Made by a program: the position numbers and the translations under genes. The notes under the pieces were generated by a model. It was given only the letters and a program-made list of their open reading frames with translations, did not search any database and had not been told where the DNA came from. Below are positions 411 to 21,577 of a stretch of 21,577 bases of DNA, piece by piece. Source of the stretch: a virus; the IMG/VR virus record IMGVR_UViG_3300037459_000052, positions 1 to 21,577 of that record; one strand, 5' to 3'. Position 1 is the first letter of the stretch. Each line of letters opens with the position of its first letter.

Positions 411-838
411 TCATCGTTTGCCCGACTGTCCCGCACACTGGCACGCATTTCATGCGTAAGCTGCTCGAGGGTGCCGATGTCGAACGGGTGGTTATTGTTC
501 ATCCATACCCAGATCAGATTGAAAATCTCACAGCGCTAGTAAAGGCCGGTAACCCTTGCATTATTCCCCTGCGACATTCGGAGGCTGTACGCGCTTCCTG
601 GAAGAAATACGGCAAAGATCTTAATAATTTTGGCGGGATGAGCTTTGGTGAGTGGTATACAGCCCGCGATCGCATCGCTGATGCAGCAACCAGATTATTC
701 TATCTTGAAATCGACAACGATGAAGACCCCTATCCGCTAGCCAAAATGGAACGAGACGAACAACTGGCGTCGATCAATCGCGAGCTCGGCCTCGAGCTGG
801 TGACAGACTGGGAACCGGTACGGCAGGCCGACGCATGA
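407..838 (+). CDS. Sulfotransferase-like P-loop protein
   Basis: A 143-residue protein starting at TTG 407. Residues 5-20 (CPTVPHTGTHFMRKLL) resemble the 5'-phosphosulfate-binding loop of sulfotransferases, where a GT/GS turn follows the first strand and leads into a helix. Residues 54-70 (IPLRHSEAVRASWKKYG) resemble the 3'-phosphate-binding motif, with an Arg after a strand and a Ser about 8 residues later. Sulfotransferases move sulfate from PAPS to a hydroxyl or amine. Full enzymes are usually 250 residues or more, so this is a minimal form, and whether it is active is open. It could instead be another P-loop nucleotide-binding fold. It is coupled to both neighbours (TTGA and ATGA overlaps) inside the packaging operon. 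The substrate cannot be read from the sequence. Confidence 0.55.
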   Translation: MIIVCPTVPHTGTHFMRKLLEGADVERVVIVHPYPDQIENLTALVKAGNPCIIPLRHSEAVRASWKKYGKDLNNFGGMSFGEWYTARDRIADAATRLFYLEIDNDEDPYPLAKMERDEQLASINRELGLELVTDWEPVRQADA

Positions 839-1569
839 GTAAATACGTCACCATGATCGGCCAAGATGACGCCCCTCACTTGAATCCGCCGGCGATCACC
901 GTCGAGGAGCGCGAGGAGTTGTTTGCTGGAATGACGGAGGGAGAGCGCCAGGCCCGTGAAACTGGGCGGCCAGCGCTCGGGGCGGGTGCGATCTATCCGA
1001 TACGTGAGGAAATGCTATTTATCGATCCGATACCGATCCCGAACTGGTGGGAGTTTGCCTACGCGCTTGATCCAGGCTGGAACGTGACCGCTGGCCTGGT
1101 ATGCGCGAGGAACCCCGATACTGATCAGCACTACCTGGTGGCTGAGTATTACGGCATGCGGGACCAGCCAGTGATTCATGCCTCGGGTTTAAAGGCGATG
1201 CTACCCTGGCCAGAGTTGATCGGTTGTATCGATCCTTCCGGCGATAATGTCGGCAACCAGAAAGACGGCACCAAAATGAAGGAGGAGTACGAGGACCAGG
1301 GGCTGATTCTACAAAAGGCCAATAATGCCGTACACTCTGGATTGCGTCACTGCCTGATACTGATGCAGACCGGCCTGCTCAAGGTGTTCAATACGCTGGT
1401 CTATTTCAAGAAGGAATTCCGCCTGTACCGTCGTGACGTGAAGGGCAAAATCGTGAAACAGAATGATCATTTACTGGACGACATGCGTTATTTATTGAAC
1501 ACCGACGGCGCATTTCAAACCCGACCGATCGATCAGCCTGGCCGCCGTGCTGGTGGTGGCGAATGGTAA
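835..1569 (+). CDS. terL: Terminase large subunit, nuclease domain only (ATPase half absent)
   Basis: 244 residues matching the C-terminal half of P22-gp2-type large terminases. It begins with the conserved linker (DDAPHL near residue 11, then an EER...ERQARE...LGAGAIYP stretch to about 55). The RNase H-like nuclease follows: first acidic residue in ALDPGW (D79), second in CIDPSGDN (D133), last pair in DHLLDDMRYL (D215/D216). This domain cuts concatemeric DNA at the portal. Intact proteins are about 450-550 residues, with Walker A/B motifs in the N-terminal half. None of that is present here, and the upstream frame is closed by a TGA at 721-723. The ATPase must lie before the window, so the terminase appears split at the domain border. 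The start overlaps the previous stop (ATGA). Confidence 0.85.
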   Translation: MSKYVTMIGQDDAPHLNPPAITVEEREELFAGMTEGERQARETGRPALGAGAIYPIREEMLFIDPIPIPNWWEFAYALDPGWNVTAGLVCARNPDTDQHYLVAEYYGMRDQPVIHASGLKAMLPWPELIGCIDPSGDNVGNQKDGTKMKEEYEDQGLILQKANNAVHSGLRHCLILMQTGLLKVFNTLVYFKKEFRLYRRDVKGKIVKQNDHLLDDMRYLLNTDGAFQTRPIDQPGRRAGGGEW

Positions 1570-5294: not shown

Positions 5295-5615
5295 ATGGTG
5301 AAATGCTACGGCAGAAATTTAGACGATCATTGCTGTTACATTGCCGGGAAGCCGTGCCCTTTTTTAGAGGAAAACACTGAGGAAGGGCAGCGGTGGTCGT
5401 GCCAATTGAGGCGCGAGACAGGTTCGTGGGAAGCTGCAATAGCTGATCCTAGATATAATACTGGCAAGGGTTCCCCTGGTCATGCATTCCGTAATACAGC
5501 GTATATAAATTGCCGGGACTTTCAATGTTCAGCTTGTGCGCGCGTGGAAACTGGAGAAATCACACAACAAGAATTTGATGCTATGAGTGGCCCTTATAAG
5601 AGGGTGCCAGTCTAA
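5295..5615 (+). CDS. Small eight-cysteine protein of unknown function
   Basis: 106 residues with eight cysteines (4, 13, 14, 21, 36, 73, 78, 81), including C-x4-C-x2-C near the C-terminus. This is far more than its neighbours carry and suggests metal binding, for example two zinc sites. The start is uncertain: GGAG at 5288-5291 is only 3 nt before the ATG at 5295 and 6 nt before the in-frame GTG at 5298, so GTG may be used. Codon use and base composition are more AT-rich than in the portal and coat genes, pointing to a different origin. Its TAA shares one base with the ATG of the repeat protein, so the two are probably co-acquired and co-translated. I do not recognise a family. Confidence 0.6.
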   Translation: MVKCYGRNLDDHCCYIAGKPCPFLEENTEEGQRWSCQLRRETGSWEAAIADPRYNTGKGSPGHAFRNTAYINCRDFQCSACARVETGEITQQEFDAMSGPYKRVPV

Positions 5616-7207
5616 TGCCTGTTGCCTTTATAGTCCCCACTGGGATTGATCTGGGAGATAATATAGTTTCTGGTGATGAAACTGATATTGACGAAACAGT
5701 TGCATTAGCCGATGGTAACTTTATTGATTTTCAAACGAATGCTTGGACGGAAAATTCCGGGTTTACGGATTTCTTTGCAGGAACTTTGCCGGGTTCTGCA
5801 ATAAGCATAAATGGTATAATTATAAGAACTAGAGCCAGATTAACGGGCGGTGATGATGATGATAACGATCTGCTTGTTGATCATCAAAATTTGGGTTTAT
5901 CTGGTGGTCCCGTAACGTTTACCAACGCGGACACGGCATTCACAAACAGAGAAGTAACACTGACTGGAACAATGCCAAGTGTTGCGACGTTTAACCAAAC
6001 AGCTACTCAATGGAGACTAAGTACAAATTTTAATCAAGTTATGGGGCCTGATGGCGGCCACTGGGAACTTGATACTTTAGAGTTTGAAGTCGATTACGAA
6101 GAAGGCTCGCAAAATATTACAGTCGATCAGGTAACGGAAACCGATACGGCACAACCGTTCACTGTTCTTTCCGATCAAAACATCGCTGTTGATCAGATCA
6201 CGGAAACAAATATAGCCAATGCGTTTGCCGTCGCTGCAGTTATTGCAATCACATTCGGGCAAGTCACCGAGATTAATACAGCCAATGCCTTTACGGTGGT
6301 CCCTGGCAACATTGATATCCCGGTCAACCAGATCACCGAGATCGACACGGCCAACCCGTTTACTGTCGCACCCGGGAACGTCGATGTCGTTGTCGCACAA
6401 ATAACAGAAACTGACACGGCCAACCCGTTCACGATCAGCCAGGGGGCGGTCATCGCATTTGGACAGCCCGTTGAGACCGACACGGCCAACGCTTTTACTG
6501 TCGTGCCTGGTAATACCAATATCCCGCTGACGCAAGTAATCGAGACCAACATCGCGCAGCCTTTCACTGTAGCACCCGGCAATGTGAATGTGGCGTTCTC
6601 ACAGGCCGTTGAGACCAACACCGCACAGCCTTTCACTATTAGCCAAGCCACCATAGTGCCGTTCTCGCAAGTGGTTGAGACTGACACCGCCCAGGCGTTT
6701 ACTGTGGTACCGGGTAATGTGAATGTGGCGTTCTCGCAGATCATCGAGACTGATACCGCCAACGCTTTCACGGTTATCGGCGGTGGCGCACCGGTAGCTG
6801 CTGATAAACTAGCAGATCCGGGGACACCTGGGAGAGAGAGGGCCAGAACTAAGCCGAGGCAAAAGCATCCGGCATGGCGCGAAATGGAGGAGCGCCTCAA
6901 GCGGGAATATGAAACCAGTCGTGATGTGCAGGAAGTTACTGAAGTTGAGCTCGAGGACGAGCCTCCCGGTGATTACCTGCAGGTTCTTATTGGCAAGCGT
7001 GATCAGGTGCAGGATGATATCGACGCGATCGAGGATCGACTCGAAAATCTCGAAGCGATGCGATCAGCTGATAATGCTATTCAACTTGAAATTGAGCAAG
7101 ATATCGAAACAGCGCAGCATTACCTGGACTTGGCGCTGGAGCGAGAGATAACCCAGGCCCGTTTGATTGCGGCGATCGAGGTCGCGATCATGTATTATTA
7201 CTATTGA
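5615..7207 (+). CDS. Large virion-type protein with ten 22-23-residue repeats and coiled-coil tail
   Basis: 530 residues in three parts. Residues 1-165 are beta-rich and acidic (a D-run near 80, then FEVDYEE at the end), like a jelly-roll or surface domain. Residues 166-389 are ten tandem units of 22-23 residues with the core (E)TDTAN/Q-x-FTV followed by PGN or a similar turn. I know the VETDTAxPxT repeat type from phage structural proteins, where it probably makes a beta-solenoid or stalk. Residues 400-530 are charged and helical (REMEERLKREYE, then EDRLENLEAM), ending oddly in MYYYY, which may be a coiled-coil trimer or anchoring tail. The repeated stalk between globular ends suggests a head fibre or surface spike, consistent with its place between portal and scaffold. 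The first 450 nt are AT-rich compared with the rest. Confidence 0.7.
   Translation: MPVAFIVPTGIDLGDNIVSGDETDIDETVALADGNFIDFQTNAWTENSGFTDFFAGTLPGSAISINGIIIRTRARLTGGDDDDNDLLVDHQNLGLSGGPVTFTNADTAFTNREVTLTGTMPSVATFNQTATQWRLSTNFNQVMGPDGGHWELDTLEFEVDYEEGSQNITVDQVTETDTAQPFTVLSDQNIAVDQITETNIANAFAVAAVIAITFGQVTEINTANAFTVVPGNIDIPVNQITEIDTANPFTVAPGNVDVVVAQITETDTANPFTISQGAVIAFGQPVETDTANAFTVVPGNTNIPLTQVIETNIAQPFTVAPGNVNVAFSQAVETNTAQPFTISQATIVPFSQVVETDTAQAFTVVPGNVNVAFSQIIETDTANAFTVIGGGAPVAADKLADPGTPGRERARTKPRQKHPAWREMEERLKREYETSRDVQEVTEVELEDEPPGDYLQVLIGKRDQVQDDIDAIEDRLENLEAMRSADNAIQLEIEQDIETAQHYLDLALEREITQARLIAAIEVAIMYYYY
6110..6783 (+). repeat. Ten imperfect tandem repeats of 66-69 nt inside the gene at 5615
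   Basis: Each unit encodes 22-23 residues of the form x-V-x-V-x-Q-(I/V)-x-E-T-(D/N)-T-A-(N/Q)-x-F-T-V-x-P-G-N. The units are diverged at DNA level, but two non-adjacent ones share 20 identical bases (6581-6600 and 6716-6735). These lie 135 nt, exactly two units, apart, which implies duplication or conversion in two-unit steps. Repeat number is likely to vary between relatives. Confidence 0.9.
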
Positions 7208-15974: not shown

Positions 15975-16520
15975 ATGATGTTCTACGAGCAGTCTGATTT
16001 TCTATCCCCCAAAGCCTTTAAACAACTGCTTGCTGCCGCCCAAAGCAGTGAATTTAACGACGTGGCCAACCCGATCGACGGCATTGTATATCCATTGATA
16101 TCCCTCGATATCCCGGACCTGGTTCGAAAGGAAATTGAATTCCTAACTAAAACGCCCGTCAAAATGTTGTTCATGCGTCGTAGTCCGAAAGGCGTCCATT
16201 GCCCCAACCCGTACCACCACGATGGCAGCCACGGCCGTACCAGCTTTATGCTGTATCTGAACGAGAGCGAGGGATCCGGTACCGCATTTGTCAGACACCG
16301 ACCCACCGGCGCAGCCTATGCGCCAGAAATAGAATCGATCGCGCAACACTTGCGTGATGATACGGCCCTCTTCAATGCCTGGGAGCTGGTGGGATTTTGT
16401 GAAGCCAAACCGAATAAGGCCTGCATGTTTAATGCTGAGTTGTTACATGCCGCCTATCCGCTCGGTGGCCATGGCGAAGGAGAGGGCGCTCGGTGCGTCC
16501 TGACAGCTTTTTTTGATTAG
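15975..16520 (+). CDS. 2-oxoglutarate/Fe(II)-dependent oxygenase, prolyl-hydroxylase type
   Basis: 181 residues. The iron triad is visible: H81 and D83 in YHHDGS (H-x-D), and H158 in ELLHAAYP. R173 in ARCVLTAFF, 15 residues on, fits the 2-oxoglutarate-binding Arg. These lie on the double-stranded beta-helix strands (TSFMLYLNES, GSGTAFV). Such enzymes hydroxylate protein, nucleic acid or small-molecule targets, releasing CO2 and succinate. The target here is unknown. GAGGG at 15969-15973 is too near the ATG at 15975, so the ATG at 15978 may be the true start. It lies in the slot of P22 gp14, opens a cassette with the GNAT gene, and follows a promoter-like gap. Related genes are common in marine phages, so it is probably functional. 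Confidence 0.85.
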   Translation: MMFYEQSDFLSPKAFKQLLAAAQSSEFNDVANPIDGIVYPLISLDIPDLVRKEIEFLTKTPVKMLFMRRSPKGVHCPNPYHHDGSHGRTSFMLYLNESEGSGTAFVRHRPTGAAYAPEIESIAQHLRDDTALFNAWELVGFCEAKPNKACMFNAELLHAAYPLGGHGEGEGARCVLTAFFD

Positions 16521-16956
16521 GCCAGCCACAGAGCTGGATTACCCGGCGATCATAGCGATGAGCCGGCAATTCTGGAAACTGATGCCGTATTCAGAACCGC
16601 ATGACGATGAGCACGTGCTGGTCATGGTGGAACTGGCGGCCGAGCAGCGATTGTTATTTGTCGTCGACATCGATAACCAGGCTGTCGGTTTCATTGCAGG
16701 AATTATCTCGCCATTATTGGCCAGCTCTGCAGCGCACCAGGTGACGGAAATCGGTTTATGGATCAACCCAGCGCAGCGCGGGCGCTATGGGATGGCATTA
16801 ATTAACATCCTTGAAAAAGGCGCGGAAGCGATCGGCGCAAAATATATGAACATGATCGCGATGGAATCGAGTGCTCCGGAGGTCGCTGAGGCGATCTATG
16901 CCCGACGTGGGTACTGGAAGCTCGAGACCGTTTACACCAAAGTATTAGGAGAATGA
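16513..16956 (+). CDS. GNAT-family N-acetyltransferase
   Basis: 147 residues. The N-terminus MIRPATELDYPAI is the standard GNAT opening. The acetyl-CoA-binding motif A is at about residues 85-100 (NPAQRGRYGMALINIL), and YARRGYWKLETVYTK near the C-terminus is motif B. It would transfer acetyl from acetyl-CoA to an amine of unknown identity. The start is a TTG that sits inside a T7 run (16508-16514) and overlaps the oxygenase stop by 8 nt; no good ribosome binding site precedes it, so it relies on coupling or on slippage. Losing one T would join both proteins in one frame. It precedes the ejection genes by one nucleotide, with the downstream AGGAG inside its end. Confidence 0.85.
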   Translation: MIRPATELDYPAIIAMSRQFWKLMPYSEPHDDEHVLVMVELAAEQRLLFVVDIDNQAVGFIAGIISPLLASSAAHQVTEIGLWINPAQRGRYGMALINILEKGAEAIGAKYMNMIAMESSAPEVAEAIYARRGYWKLETVYTKVLGE

Positions 16957-18491: not shown

Positions 18492-21400
18492 ATGGCAACC
18501 AGGCTGCAAGATTTTCGGGAGCAATACCCGCAGTATTCGGATATGGACGACGAGGATCTGGCCGAATCGCTGCGCCAGCGCTATTACTCCGACATGCCTG
18601 TTGATACCTATCGTGAGTCGATGGGGCTTGGGCCGTCGGTTTGGAATGAATATCCGAAGGATCCTGCAGGGTTCAGCATCGACCCGACTAGGCCATCAAT
18701 TAAAAATCCAGATGGTAGCATGTCGACCGAGCGCACGGTCACGGTAGAATTTGATGGGCGCCAGATAAATATCCCGAGCATTGTTGACGGCAAAGCCTAC
18801 GATTACAATGATCCGGCACAGATGGATTTTATCATCCAGGATGCACGCAAGAAAATGCGGCAAGGCTGGAAATTTCCAAACTTTGCCACGGTCGATGAAG
18901 CTGTTGCTGCAGCGAAGCAACGTAGTGCCGGGATCCGGCCGGCGCGTAATCAATGGGAAGCTGATCATAAGCCGAGTGTGTGGGACCGGGTGAGCTCCTT
19001 GTGGGAGAAAACCGAGCAAAAGTCAGACAATGTGCTCGAGCCTGCAGTATCGCCCCGGGTCGATTTCGAAACCGATGATGAAACTCGCGAAGCAATCAAA
19101 GCCGAAACCGACACAGGTTATTCGCAACCTCTCAGTGGTCGCAGTAAATTCAAACGATTCAATGATAAATCCATTGCCACGATATCGCCCGAGGCGGAGA
19201 GCAAGACCGAACCTCGAGCGCTACTGCGCGATCAGCTGTTTGCCGGCTTTGATGAAATGCGCGCTAACCGGGCAACCACTGACTTTTTGGCAGCGAGCCA
19301 GGAATACCGAAGCGCAGAAGCGATCGCCACCGGTGAGCTGACTCAGGGCGGGTATCCCAATACAGGTGCAACCGGCGCCGAAATCGATAAGCGGATCCGG
19401 GCAGCGCATGCTAAATATGGCGACCAGAGCCAAAGCGCTGCGGCAATGGCTGATATTCAACGTGATATTGATTTGGTGCGCACGGAACAGGTTCAGCGCA
19501 TGCAGCAGGCGATCGATAAATCCACAGAGCTGCGTGGCCGTGCATCCCAGGTGCCCTACCACAAAGAAACTCGCGAGATGCTCGAGGCCGAAACATTCGG
19601 TGAGGGTATCAGCGAATTCATGGACGACCCCGTGATGATTATCGCCGAGACCAGTTTGCGATCGCTGCCGAATATGGCCGAGGCAATCCCGCTCGCAGTC
19701 GGTGGTGCGATCGTGGCCGGTCCTTATGGTTTCGCTGCAGGCATGGGTACTGGGGCCGCGATGGTGGAATACCGTGCAGCCTTTGCCCAATACCTACAAA
19801 CCCAGGGCGTGGATCTCACGGACGCGCAATCGATGGTCACCGCTGGCATGAATGATGATCTCATGCGACAGGCCCGCGAGTACGCCGGTACGCGCTCTAG
19901 TGTGATAGGCACGTTTGCAGCAATATCAGGCGGCATTGCCACCAAACCCCTGACCCCATTTGTCAAAAACATTGTCGGTCGAGAGTTATCGAATATCGGC
20001 GCTCAGATCGTGGCTCAGGCCAGCCTCGAGGGAACTGGTGAAGCCCTGGCCCAAGTGGCCACAGGTGAGGACATTGCCCCGGGTGAGGTCATGGCTGAAA
20101 TGACTGGATCTCTGATCAGTGCGCCGATCGAGGTAGGGGCTGCAGCTGTGACTGGGGTGCGCGCGCAATCACAACAGGCCCAAGTTGCGCGCATTGAGAG
20201 TGAGGTCAACGAGATACTGGGTCGTGGCGATTTTTATGAACCACCGACTACGGCGCCTGACGAGACGATTACACCAGCACCAGAGCCGGACCAGGTTCCA
20301 CGTGAAACAGCGGGCCCGCCAGGCCCGGATCTCGACGACGGGACCATGCCACCGGATATTGATTTCCCGACTGGCGAGGTCGATGACGGCACCATACCCG
20401 GCGATGTTGATTTTCCACCTGACGACACGATCGAGCGCGAGGACGTGGTTGAGTATTTCGATCAGCGCTTGAAACGGAATTTTTACCGGGAACACTTGCA
20501 GGGTATGGCAAACGAGCTCGTATACGGCGGGGAAGTGACCTACCTGCGCGACGAAAACGATAAGATTATCGGGCGTACACCATCGCTTGATCCAGAATGG
20601 TTTCAATTTATGAGCCAGGATCCGGAGTACAGCATGAGCACCGACCAGGTGAAAAATGCGGTAACCAAAGCGATCACCGGTAAAAAACTGGGGGTTCGCC
20701 AGCAAAGGGTGGTTCAGGCCATGATCGATATCGTAACTGACCAGCGGCTGGCTGAGGTTGACTACGCAAGGCAGGAGCTTGAGGCGGCTCGTAAACGCCG
20801 TTCTGAGCGACGATCTGCAGAAGGTATGCAACCTGACGCTGATGCGGAGATTGCAGGAGAGCGCTACAGCGAGGACGAGTACAGCCCTGAAATGAGCGCT
20901 GATAGCCGAATCATCTTTGAATTGATGGAGTCGGCGGTTGAAATGGGTGTTGATGAGGGTATCCTCGAAGGCCTGGCCATTAAAATTGAAGACAACCAGG
21001 CGCTGATGACAGCCCTGGAAGGAGTGATTGATGAACACAGACGCACGGCTCGCCCTGCGACAGCTGAAGCGCAACCGCCGACTAGGCCGGATCCCGACGC
21101 TGAAACCGCAGATATCTTCGGAGACAACACCGAATCAGCGCAAGCGATCGCGGACGAGATCCGACGACGTGACACCGCACGTGATGCCGGCCAGGAATCA
21201 GTAGAAACCGGGGATCCCGGAGATCTGTTCAGCGATGCCCAGCGCCAAGTCGATATCGATGATGCTGTACCCGGCGCCATGCCGGGCGTTTACGACCACG
21301 CCAAGCACGTATCAGAAGTATTAACCGGCAAAAAAACACTACACAGGAAAGGAAACAGGCAAGGGCGCTGGTGGTCTAATACCCAAAAATACACCAATCT

Positions 21401-21577
21401 TTATAAGGATACGGGCGAGGGGGGGCCACAGACAATCGAAGTAGATCTTGATCAGCTGAATATCCTGGACACGCTGAATAACAATAGTGATTTTTTAAAT
21501 AATCTTGATAATAACGAAATCGATATTGAGCTCAAAAAGCGTGGTTATGACGGGTGGTTGGGAGATAGTGAGCTAGA
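18492..21577 (+). CDS. Giant ejection / internal virion protein, gp16-like position, with ADP-ribosyltransferase-like C-terminus (truncated by window)
   Basis: Open from the ATG at 18492 to the window end (at least 1028 residues, no stop). There is no strong ribosome binding site; it starts 2 nt after the previous stop. Residues 1-45 (FREQYPQYSDMDDEDLAESL) match the opening of large phage internal proteins. Residues about 68-150 (NPDGSMSTERTVTVEFDG, then IPSIVDG) match a domain common in phage virion proteins. Residues about 377-556 are Gly/Ala-rich and hydrophobic, which fits a membrane-spanning conduit. Residues 580-655 are an acidic Pro linker with a twofold 16-residue repeat. From H951 (HRKGNRQGRWWSNTQKYT, then TIEVDLDQL, ending KKRGYDGWLGDSE) the segment resembles ADP-ribosyltransferase domains of injected polyvalent proteins. 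That last call is tentative because the domain is cut. P22 gp16 is 609 residues. Confidence 0.75.
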   Translation, partial: MATRLQDFREQYPQYSDMDDEDLAESLRQRYYSDMPVDTYRESMGLGPSVWNEYPKDPAGFSIDPTRPSIKNPDGSMSTERTVTVEFDGRQINIPSIVDGKAYDYNDPAQMDFIIQDARKKMRQGWKFPNFATVDEAVAAAKQRSAGIRPARNQWEADHKPSVWDRVSSLWEKTEQKSDNVLEPAVSPRVDFETDDETREAIKAETDTGYSQPLSGRSKFKRFNDKSIATISPEAESKTEPRALLRDQLFAGFDEMRANRATTDFLAASQEYRSAEAIATGELTQGGYPNTGATGAEIDKRIRAAHAKYGDQSQSAAAMADIQRDIDLVRTEQVQRMQQAIDKSTELRGRASQVPYHKETREMLEAETFGEGISEFMDDPVMIIAETSLRSLPNMAEAIPLAVGGAIVAGPYGFAAGMGTGAAMVEYRAAFAQYLQTQGVDLTDAQSMVTAGMNDDLMRQAREYAGTRSSVIGTFAAISGGIATKPLTPFVKNIVGRELSNIGAQIVAQASLEGTGEALAQVATGEDIAPGEVMAEMTGSLISAPIEVGAAAVTGVRAQSQQAQVARIESEVNEILGRGDFYEPPTTAPDETITPAPEPDQVPRETAGPPGPDLDDGTMPPDIDFPTGEVDDGTIPGDVDFPPDDTIEREDVVEYFDQRLKRNFYREHLQGMANELVYGGEVTYLRDENDKIIGRTPSLDPEWFQFMSQDPEYSMSTDQVKNAVTKAITGKKLGVRQQRVVQAMIDIVTDQRLAEVDYARQELEAARKRRSERRSAEGMQPDADAEIAGERYSEDEYSPEMSADSRIIFELMESAVEMGVDEGILEGLAIKIEDNQALMTALEGVIDEHRRTARPATAEAQPPTRPDPDAETADIFGDNTESAQAIADEIRRRDTARDAGQESVETGDPGDLFSDAQRQVDIDDAVPGAMPGVYDHAKHVSEVLTGKKTLHRKGNRQGRWWSNTQKYTNLYKDTGEGGPQTIEVDLDQLNILDTLNNNSDFLNNLDNNEIDIELKKRGYDGWLGDSEL
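20334..20429 (+). repeat. Twofold 48-nt repeat in the linker of the giant protein
   Basis: Two 16-residue units, the first starting DDGTMPPDIDFP and the second DDGTIPGDVDFP, at 20334-20381 and 20382-20429 (residues 615-646). They lie in a disordered, acidic, proline-rich linker, typical of a spacer between functional domains. Confidence 0.7.

What the first reader, a model, noticed from the sequence alone, without database searches (positions are those of the whole stretch)
21300..21577. ADP-ribosyltransferase-like segment at the end of the giant ejection protein
H951...GRWWSNTQKYT, a strand TIEVDLDQL, and KKRGYDGWLGDSE match the order of ADP-ribosyltransferase domains in phage polyvalent proteins: an early H or R, a WxS/T strand, and GYDG before a final E. 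If injected with DNA, this enzyme could modify host targets at once, as T4 Alt does. The catalytic end is cut by the window, so it is unproven.
Basis: inference. Interest (0 to 1): 0.65.

Follow-up and report, generated by a model that had tools for sequence, protein, structure and literature searches.

The report
Divergent ADP-ribosyltransferase in phage ejection protein
A P22-like virus of bacteria appears to carry, inside a giant protein that is probably injected with its DNA, an unusual and so far uncatalogued version of an enzyme domain that attaches ADP-ribose to host targets; the domain is cut off by the end of the available sequence, so activity is unproven.

Summary
The quoted residues are real and in frame. 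The segment is not the end of the protein: the window is a whole 21,577-base fragment, and four sister phages have 1,260-1,467 more residues after the matching point. It lies in a module slot directly after a conserved linker. One sister (L004) has a clear Pfam ART-PolyVal domain there (E 8e-12); three others go straight on to a GGDEF-like domain. The segment hits no Pfam, PHROG or NCBIfam model, but is significantly ART-like: a 76-sequence ART-PolyVal profile scores it at about 3e-6, with 0 of 5,000 shuffles as good; a pattern made from its own spacing pulled ART-PolyVal domains out of 2.9 million viral contigs (8 of 10 in-frame hits); and a homologue (G825, E 3e-14, in a 2,213-codon ORF) independently matches the same profile. 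That homologue corrects the anatomy: H951 is Tyr there, R952 is kept in the place of the family's His, GRWWS is identical, D1020 and E1027 are conserved. Most likely it is a divergent R-type ART module of an injected polyvalent protein. Catalysis, target and injection are inferred. Single-sequence folding failed (pLDDT 37.5); alignment-based folding was closed. Interest moderate: a new variant of a known kind.

The parts
18492..21575 (+). N-terminal 1028 residues of a giant polyvalent protein, cut by the contig end
   Evidence: ORF open at 3' edge; sister giants are 2473-3421 codons stop to stop
18504..18638 (+). residues 5-49, shared with the N-termini of giant polyvalent proteins of isolated podophages (X14, BA3, 41E34.2, 1.211.A); possible packaging or ejection signal (inference)
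   Evidence: tblastn E 7e-8 to 5e-4
20445..21053 (+). residues 652-854, conserved domain of unknown function in all four sister giants
   Evidence: 43-54% identity to L003-L006
21087..21272 (+). residues 866-927, conserved linker RRRD..R..GQ.S.ETGD.GDLFS after which cargo modules vary
   Evidence: alignments A2, A3; cargo after it
21318..21577 (+). ART-like module (residues 943-1028 and on), truncated by the contig end
21330..21353 (+). predicted strand 1, KKTLHRKG; R952 (21345-21347) is the candidate catalytic residue; H951 (21342-21344) is Tyr in the homologue
   Evidence: alignment with L172 KRTLYRRG
21363..21377 (+). predicted strand 2, GRWWS (958-962), equals G-x-[YW]-F-[TS] of ART-PolyVal
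21432..21458 (+). predicted strand 3, TIEVDLDQL (981-989), aligned with VxPVYLSIKNP
21543..21554 (+). GYDG (1018-1021), predicted strand 5; D1020 (21549-21551) invariant across 44 aligned sequences
21570..21572 (+). E1027, conserved in the homologue; alternative third catalytic residue
16958..17623 (+). gp7-like DNA ejection protein
   Evidence: phrog_598 'DNA ejection', E 1.6e-7; homologues in L003-L007
17623..18489 (+). conserved ORF directly before the giant, probable ejection protein by position
   Evidence: phrog_36852, E 2.4e-19; homologues in L003-L010

Best explanation
The segment is the first part, probably two thirds, of a divergent ADP-ribosyltransferase-fold module, of a rare Arg-type subfamily related to ART-PolyVal, set in the middle of a giant polyvalent protein of a P22-like podovirus. 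The protein is probably packaged with the ejection proteins and enters the cell with the DNA. The module would then bind NAD+ between strand 1 (TLHR952KG) and strand 2 (GRW960WS) and, using D1020 of GYDG and/or E1027, move ADP-ribose onto a host macromolecule to help early infection. Shown here: the frame, the statistical ART relationship, a true homologue with R952, GRWWS, D1020 and E1027 conserved, and the module slot after a conserved linker that holds a clear ART-PolyVal in one sister phage and none in three. Inferred: fold, catalysis, injection, host target.
For: Profile from 76 ART-PolyVal domains (most collected): segment ranks first of 1238 targets; single-sequence E 2.6e-6, 8.6e-7 and 5.1e-6 with three versions of the profile, 0 of 5000 shuffles each. 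hhalign 73%, E 3e-5, rising to 86%, E 5.5e-6 when the homologue is added; decoys 0.7% and 0.3%. A pattern from the segment's own motif spacing found 48 stretches in viral contigs; 8 of the 10 in-frame open ones are ART-PolyVal, and no other ART lies in that 474 kb except tandem copies beside the hits, confirmed by Pfam. Homologue G825/L172, E 3.1e-14, 37% identity, itself matches the ART profile at E 5.1e-6, 0 of 3000 shuffles. The same slot holds PF18760 in L004, E 7.9e-12; an ART also follows the linker region in L023. Gene order ends in ejection genes then the giant, as in VvAW1 and others.
Against: No Pfam, PHROG or NCBIfam model convincingly hits the segment; the Pfam ART-PolyVal model does not ring in this genome even at E 10. 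Against the whole 1028-residue protein the profile score is only 7.4 bits. The YHG strand-1 signature is absent: best site no better than shuffles, 43%. The gap from H951/R952 to strand 2 (about 7) is shorter than the usual range (13 or more). The single-sequence model is uninformative, pLDDT 37.5. Only one homologue was found. The C-terminal third is missing.
Confidence: 0.75

Rival explanations
1. The module has the ART fold but is catalytically dead or repurposed: it lost the canonical strand-1 His and serves as a binding or spacer domain.
For: YHG signature missing; T4-like R-S-E sites are not known in polyvalent proteins (PMC5512222); L165 shows that strand 1 can drift in this family (YNA instead of YHG).
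Against: R952, GRWWS, D1020 and E1027 are kept between two sequences only 37% identical, which suggests selection on a site.
Confidence: 0.25
2. It is a different alpha/beta domain that merely resembles the strand 2 to strand 5 part of ARTs by convergence.
For: No curated model hits; no structure could be computed; strand 1 and loop length differ from ART-PolyVal.
Against: Two sequences match the ART profile with the same alignment; pattern retrieval; slot shared with a true ART.
Confidence: 0.12
3. Contig-end artefact: the last 250-300 bases are a chimera or mis-assembly and do not belong to this protein.
For: G+C drops from 56% to 44% right after the linker; no sister has this sequence.
Against: The frame runs on without a break; the joined part is a plausible cargo for this slot and has its own homologue inside another giant protein.
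Confidence: 0.07

Closest known systems
ART-PolyVal (Pfam PF18760), the Tox-ART-HYD2-like ARTs of phage polyvalent proteins (PMC5512222)
   Same: Order and sequence of strand 2 (G-x-[YW]-F-[TS]-x4-[YF]-[AT]), strand 3 and GYDG; setting inside a giant virion polyvalent protein; same slot after the linker as in L004
   Different: No YHG: Arg in place of the strand-1 His, about 7 residues instead of 13 or more to strand 2; no hit to the Pfam model
Phage T4 Alt (R-S-E ART, injected with the DNA)
   Same: Would be injected and act at once; Arg in strand 1 and Glu near the end are at least possible
   Different: No similarity to any Alt-type model was found here; different clade; Alt is a stand-alone head protein, not a polyvalent one
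Giant polyvalent proteins of podophages VvAW1, 1.211.A, BA3, 41E34.2, X14
   Same: Gene position after the ejection genes; shared 45-residue N-terminus (not detected for VvAW1); LPD38 at the far end of VvAW1, 1.211.A and 41E34.2, as in sisters L012 and L013
   Different: Where scanned, those carry methylase (VvAW1 also helicase) modules and no detected ART

Membership tests
ART-PolyVal (PF18760) | Score above the curated cut-off of the family model | tested here: not met
   No match in this genome at E up to 10; no Pfam hit
ART-PolyVal (PF18760) | His in strand 1 (YHG) | tested here: not met
   Best site scores like shuffles; R952 stands in the His place by alignment with L172 (placement inferred)
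ART-PolyVal (PF18760) | Tyr in strand 2, within G-x-[YW]-F-[TS] | tested here: met
   GRWWS aligns with Trp at the Tyr place; Trp is common there in true members
ART-PolyVal (PF18760) | Asp in strand 5 (GxDG) | tested here: met
   D1020 invariant in 44 sequences
ART-PolyVal (PF18760) | C-terminal strand F-x-P-x-Q-I-K | not testable with these tools
   Beyond the contig end; the homologue has NIFFLAKNVDEI there, aligned by hhalign
ADP-ribosyltransferase superfamily | Significant profile relationship to a known ART family | tested here: met
ADP-ribosyltransferase superfamily | Split beta-sheet NAD-binding fold | tested here: inconclusive
T4 Alt / R-S-E ARTs | Arg, Ser and Glu at the active site | tested here: inconclusive
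   R952, S962 and E1027 conserved in the one homologue; no profile hit to any such family
Phage polyvalent protein | Very large protein with several unrelated domains, carried in the virion | tested here: inconclusive
   Size and domains met by the sisters: 2473-3421 codons with ART, GGDEF, RadC-like and LPD38 domains; presence in virions not testable here

The most novel reading that the evidence does not exclude
A catalytically active Arg-type ART subfamily, with an R-W(S)-D/E site, exists in polyvalent proteins, where only His-type (H-Y-D) ARTs have been described; P22-like podoviruses swap it in and out at a fixed slot between a linker and a cyclic-nucleotide-synthase-like domain.
Probability: 0.4. 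Interest if true: 0.5.

Novelty: new variant of a known kind. Interest (0 to 1): 0.4.

Why it matters
ARTs are the commonest protein-modifying domains of polyvalent proteins, but none of the curated libraries searched here sees this form. [quoted passage not shown] The fixed slot, filled in some sisters and empty in others, gives a natural presence/absence experiment.

Tried and rejected
H951 as the catalytic His: rejected, it is Tyr in the homologue. H936 (VYDH): best YHG-like site, but no better than shuffles and outside the region shared with the homologue. Extension of the contig: impossible, the record ends there. Direct searches with the segment: no relatives in viral contigs, genome contigs (exact-peptide seeds), phages or plasmids. 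A first motif pattern GRWWS...Y gave 0 hits. PDB sequence search gave only chance matches. Weak hits in 369 genomes of one class were inspected and were chance. Searching the homologue and the two-row profile in phages, plasmids and about 785 genomes gave no convincing third member. G+C drop as proof of recent transfer: suggestive only.

Full report
What was checked. The window is the whole of one viral record of 21,577 bases, classed as a linear fragment. It encodes P22-like virion genes: portal (PF16510, E 1e-137), coat (PF11651, E 6e-52) and a head-closure protein (phrog_578, E 3e-75), then an ejection gene (phrog_598, E 1.6e-7), a conserved ORF, and the giant ORF that runs off the right edge. 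The frame is genuine: no stop in 92 codons, against 6 and 14 in the other forward frames.

Not the end of the protein. Four sister phages were found through the head-closure gene, with homologous giant proteins. Stop to stop these are 2473-3421 codons, with 1260-1467 residues after the conserved linker that ends at window residue 927. Isolated relatives (Vibrio phages VvAW1, 1.211.A and 41E34.2; Thalassomonas phage BA3; Shewanella phage X14) have the same gene order or the same giant N-terminus, with giants of about 2630-3640 residues where the full gene was read; VvAW1, 1.211.A and 41E34.2 carry methylase modules (VvAW1 also a helicase) and LPD38. So the window holds roughly the first third of a polyvalent protein.

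A module slot. The linker (RRRD..R..GQ.S.ETGD.GDLFS) is conserved in window and sisters. In L004 it is followed at once by a true ART-PolyVal domain (PF18760, E 7.9e-12, residues 1801-1923) and then GGDEF. In the genomes of L003 and L005 (read as L012 and L013) it goes straight to GGDEF, and in L006 to a degenerate GGDEF-like sequence (the last is my reading of the sequence). More distant giants have other cargo after it, and L023 has an ART. In L004 the protein after the linker is about 140 residues longer than in the genomes of L003 and L005, the size of one ART domain (my arithmetic).

The segment is ART-like. No curated model convincingly hits it. Three tests nevertheless agree. First, a profile from 76 ART-PolyVal domains (71 of them) ranks it above 1000 shuffles and 237 decoys; as a single sequence E is 8.6e-7 to 5.1e-6 with three profile versions and 0 of 5000 shuffles reach it. 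The match runs colinearly over strand 2, strand 3 and GYDG. Placed in the whole 1028-residue protein the score falls to 7.4 bits, so this is a targeted, not a database-wide, significance. Second, hhalign gives 73% (E 3e-5) against 0.7% and 0.3% for two other parts of the same protein. Third, a DNA pattern built only from the segment's motif spacing was run on 2.9 million viral contigs: 48 stretches, 10 in frame and open, 8 of these ART-PolyVal, falling into five distinct sequences or close groups. These have G-x-W-F-[TS], so Trp at the strand-2 Tyr place is normal in the family.

A true homologue corrects the anatomy. A scan of 391 genomes of one order found one relative at E 3.1e-14, 37% identity, inside a 2213-codon ORF (G825, locus L172). 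It reads KRTLYRRGHREGRWWSDDKSYTELYKES...VDFDNLKVWDTVND...SNGFDAARMEGEDGQNIFFLAKNVDEI. On its own it matches the ART profile at E 5.1e-6 with the same alignment, 0 of 3000 shuffles, and adding it raises hhalign to 86%, E 5.5e-6, now reaching the C-terminal strand. Conserved between the two: R952, GRWWS, Y967-T968, D1020, E1027. H951 is Tyr in the homologue, so TL[HY]R lines up with the family's VVYH and Arg takes the place of His. That placement is inference: the profile alignments start after strand 1, the YHG signature is absent and the loop to strand 2 is short. The homologue's own ORF has no Pfam hit, only weak ParB-like PHROG matches, so its phage origin is likely but not shown.

How it probably works. 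P22 injects the products of genes 7, 16 and 20 with its DNA (abstract of PMC8402733). The giant sits after the ejection genes and shares its N-terminal 45 residues with other podophage giants, so injection is likely but not shown. Polyvalent ARTs are thought to modify host proteins early in infection (PMC5512222). The proposed site is R952, W960/S962 and D1020 and/or E1027; the published sites are H-Y-D for polyvalent ARTs and R-S-E for T4 Alt. No target can be named.

Membership. By tested features it is not a standard ART-PolyVal member (model cut-off and strand-1 His not met), but it is a relative within the ART superfamily and works, most likely, like one. T4 Alt is an analogy only.

Limits. 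Only one homologue is known. The last third of the domain is outside the window.

Noticed in passing
window 835-1569 and 407-838: Terminase nuclease domain (PF17289, E 9e-4, just under the curated cut-off) stands in a 244-codon ORF of its own without the ATPase part, preceded by an unrelated small ORF; possibly a split or interrupted terminase, but the contig starts just upstream.
   Followed up: partly
window 15975-16520 and 16513-16956: A dioxygenase-like protein (DUF6445, E 1.2e-6) and a GNAT acetyltransferase (PF00583, E 6.6e-7) sit between the tail and ejection genes.
   Followed up: no
window 5615-7207 (array 6542-6739): An ORF with repeats of a TETDTANAFTV-like unit; 69-base tandem array of 2.9 copies.
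   Followed up: no
L012, L013, L004: Sister giants carry a GGDEF domain after the linker (E 1e-6 to 2e-10), a possible cyclic-nucleotide synthase injected with the DNA; L004 also has a RadC-like JAB domain (E 4e-6).
   Followed up: partly
L165:3604-4053 (-): An ART-PolyVal domain with YNA in place of YHG in strand 1, so natural loss of the strand-1 His occurs in this family.
   Followed up: no
window 21273-21577: G+C falls from 56% in the first 930 codons of the giant to 44% right after the linker, consistent with a swapped-in module.
   Followed up: partly
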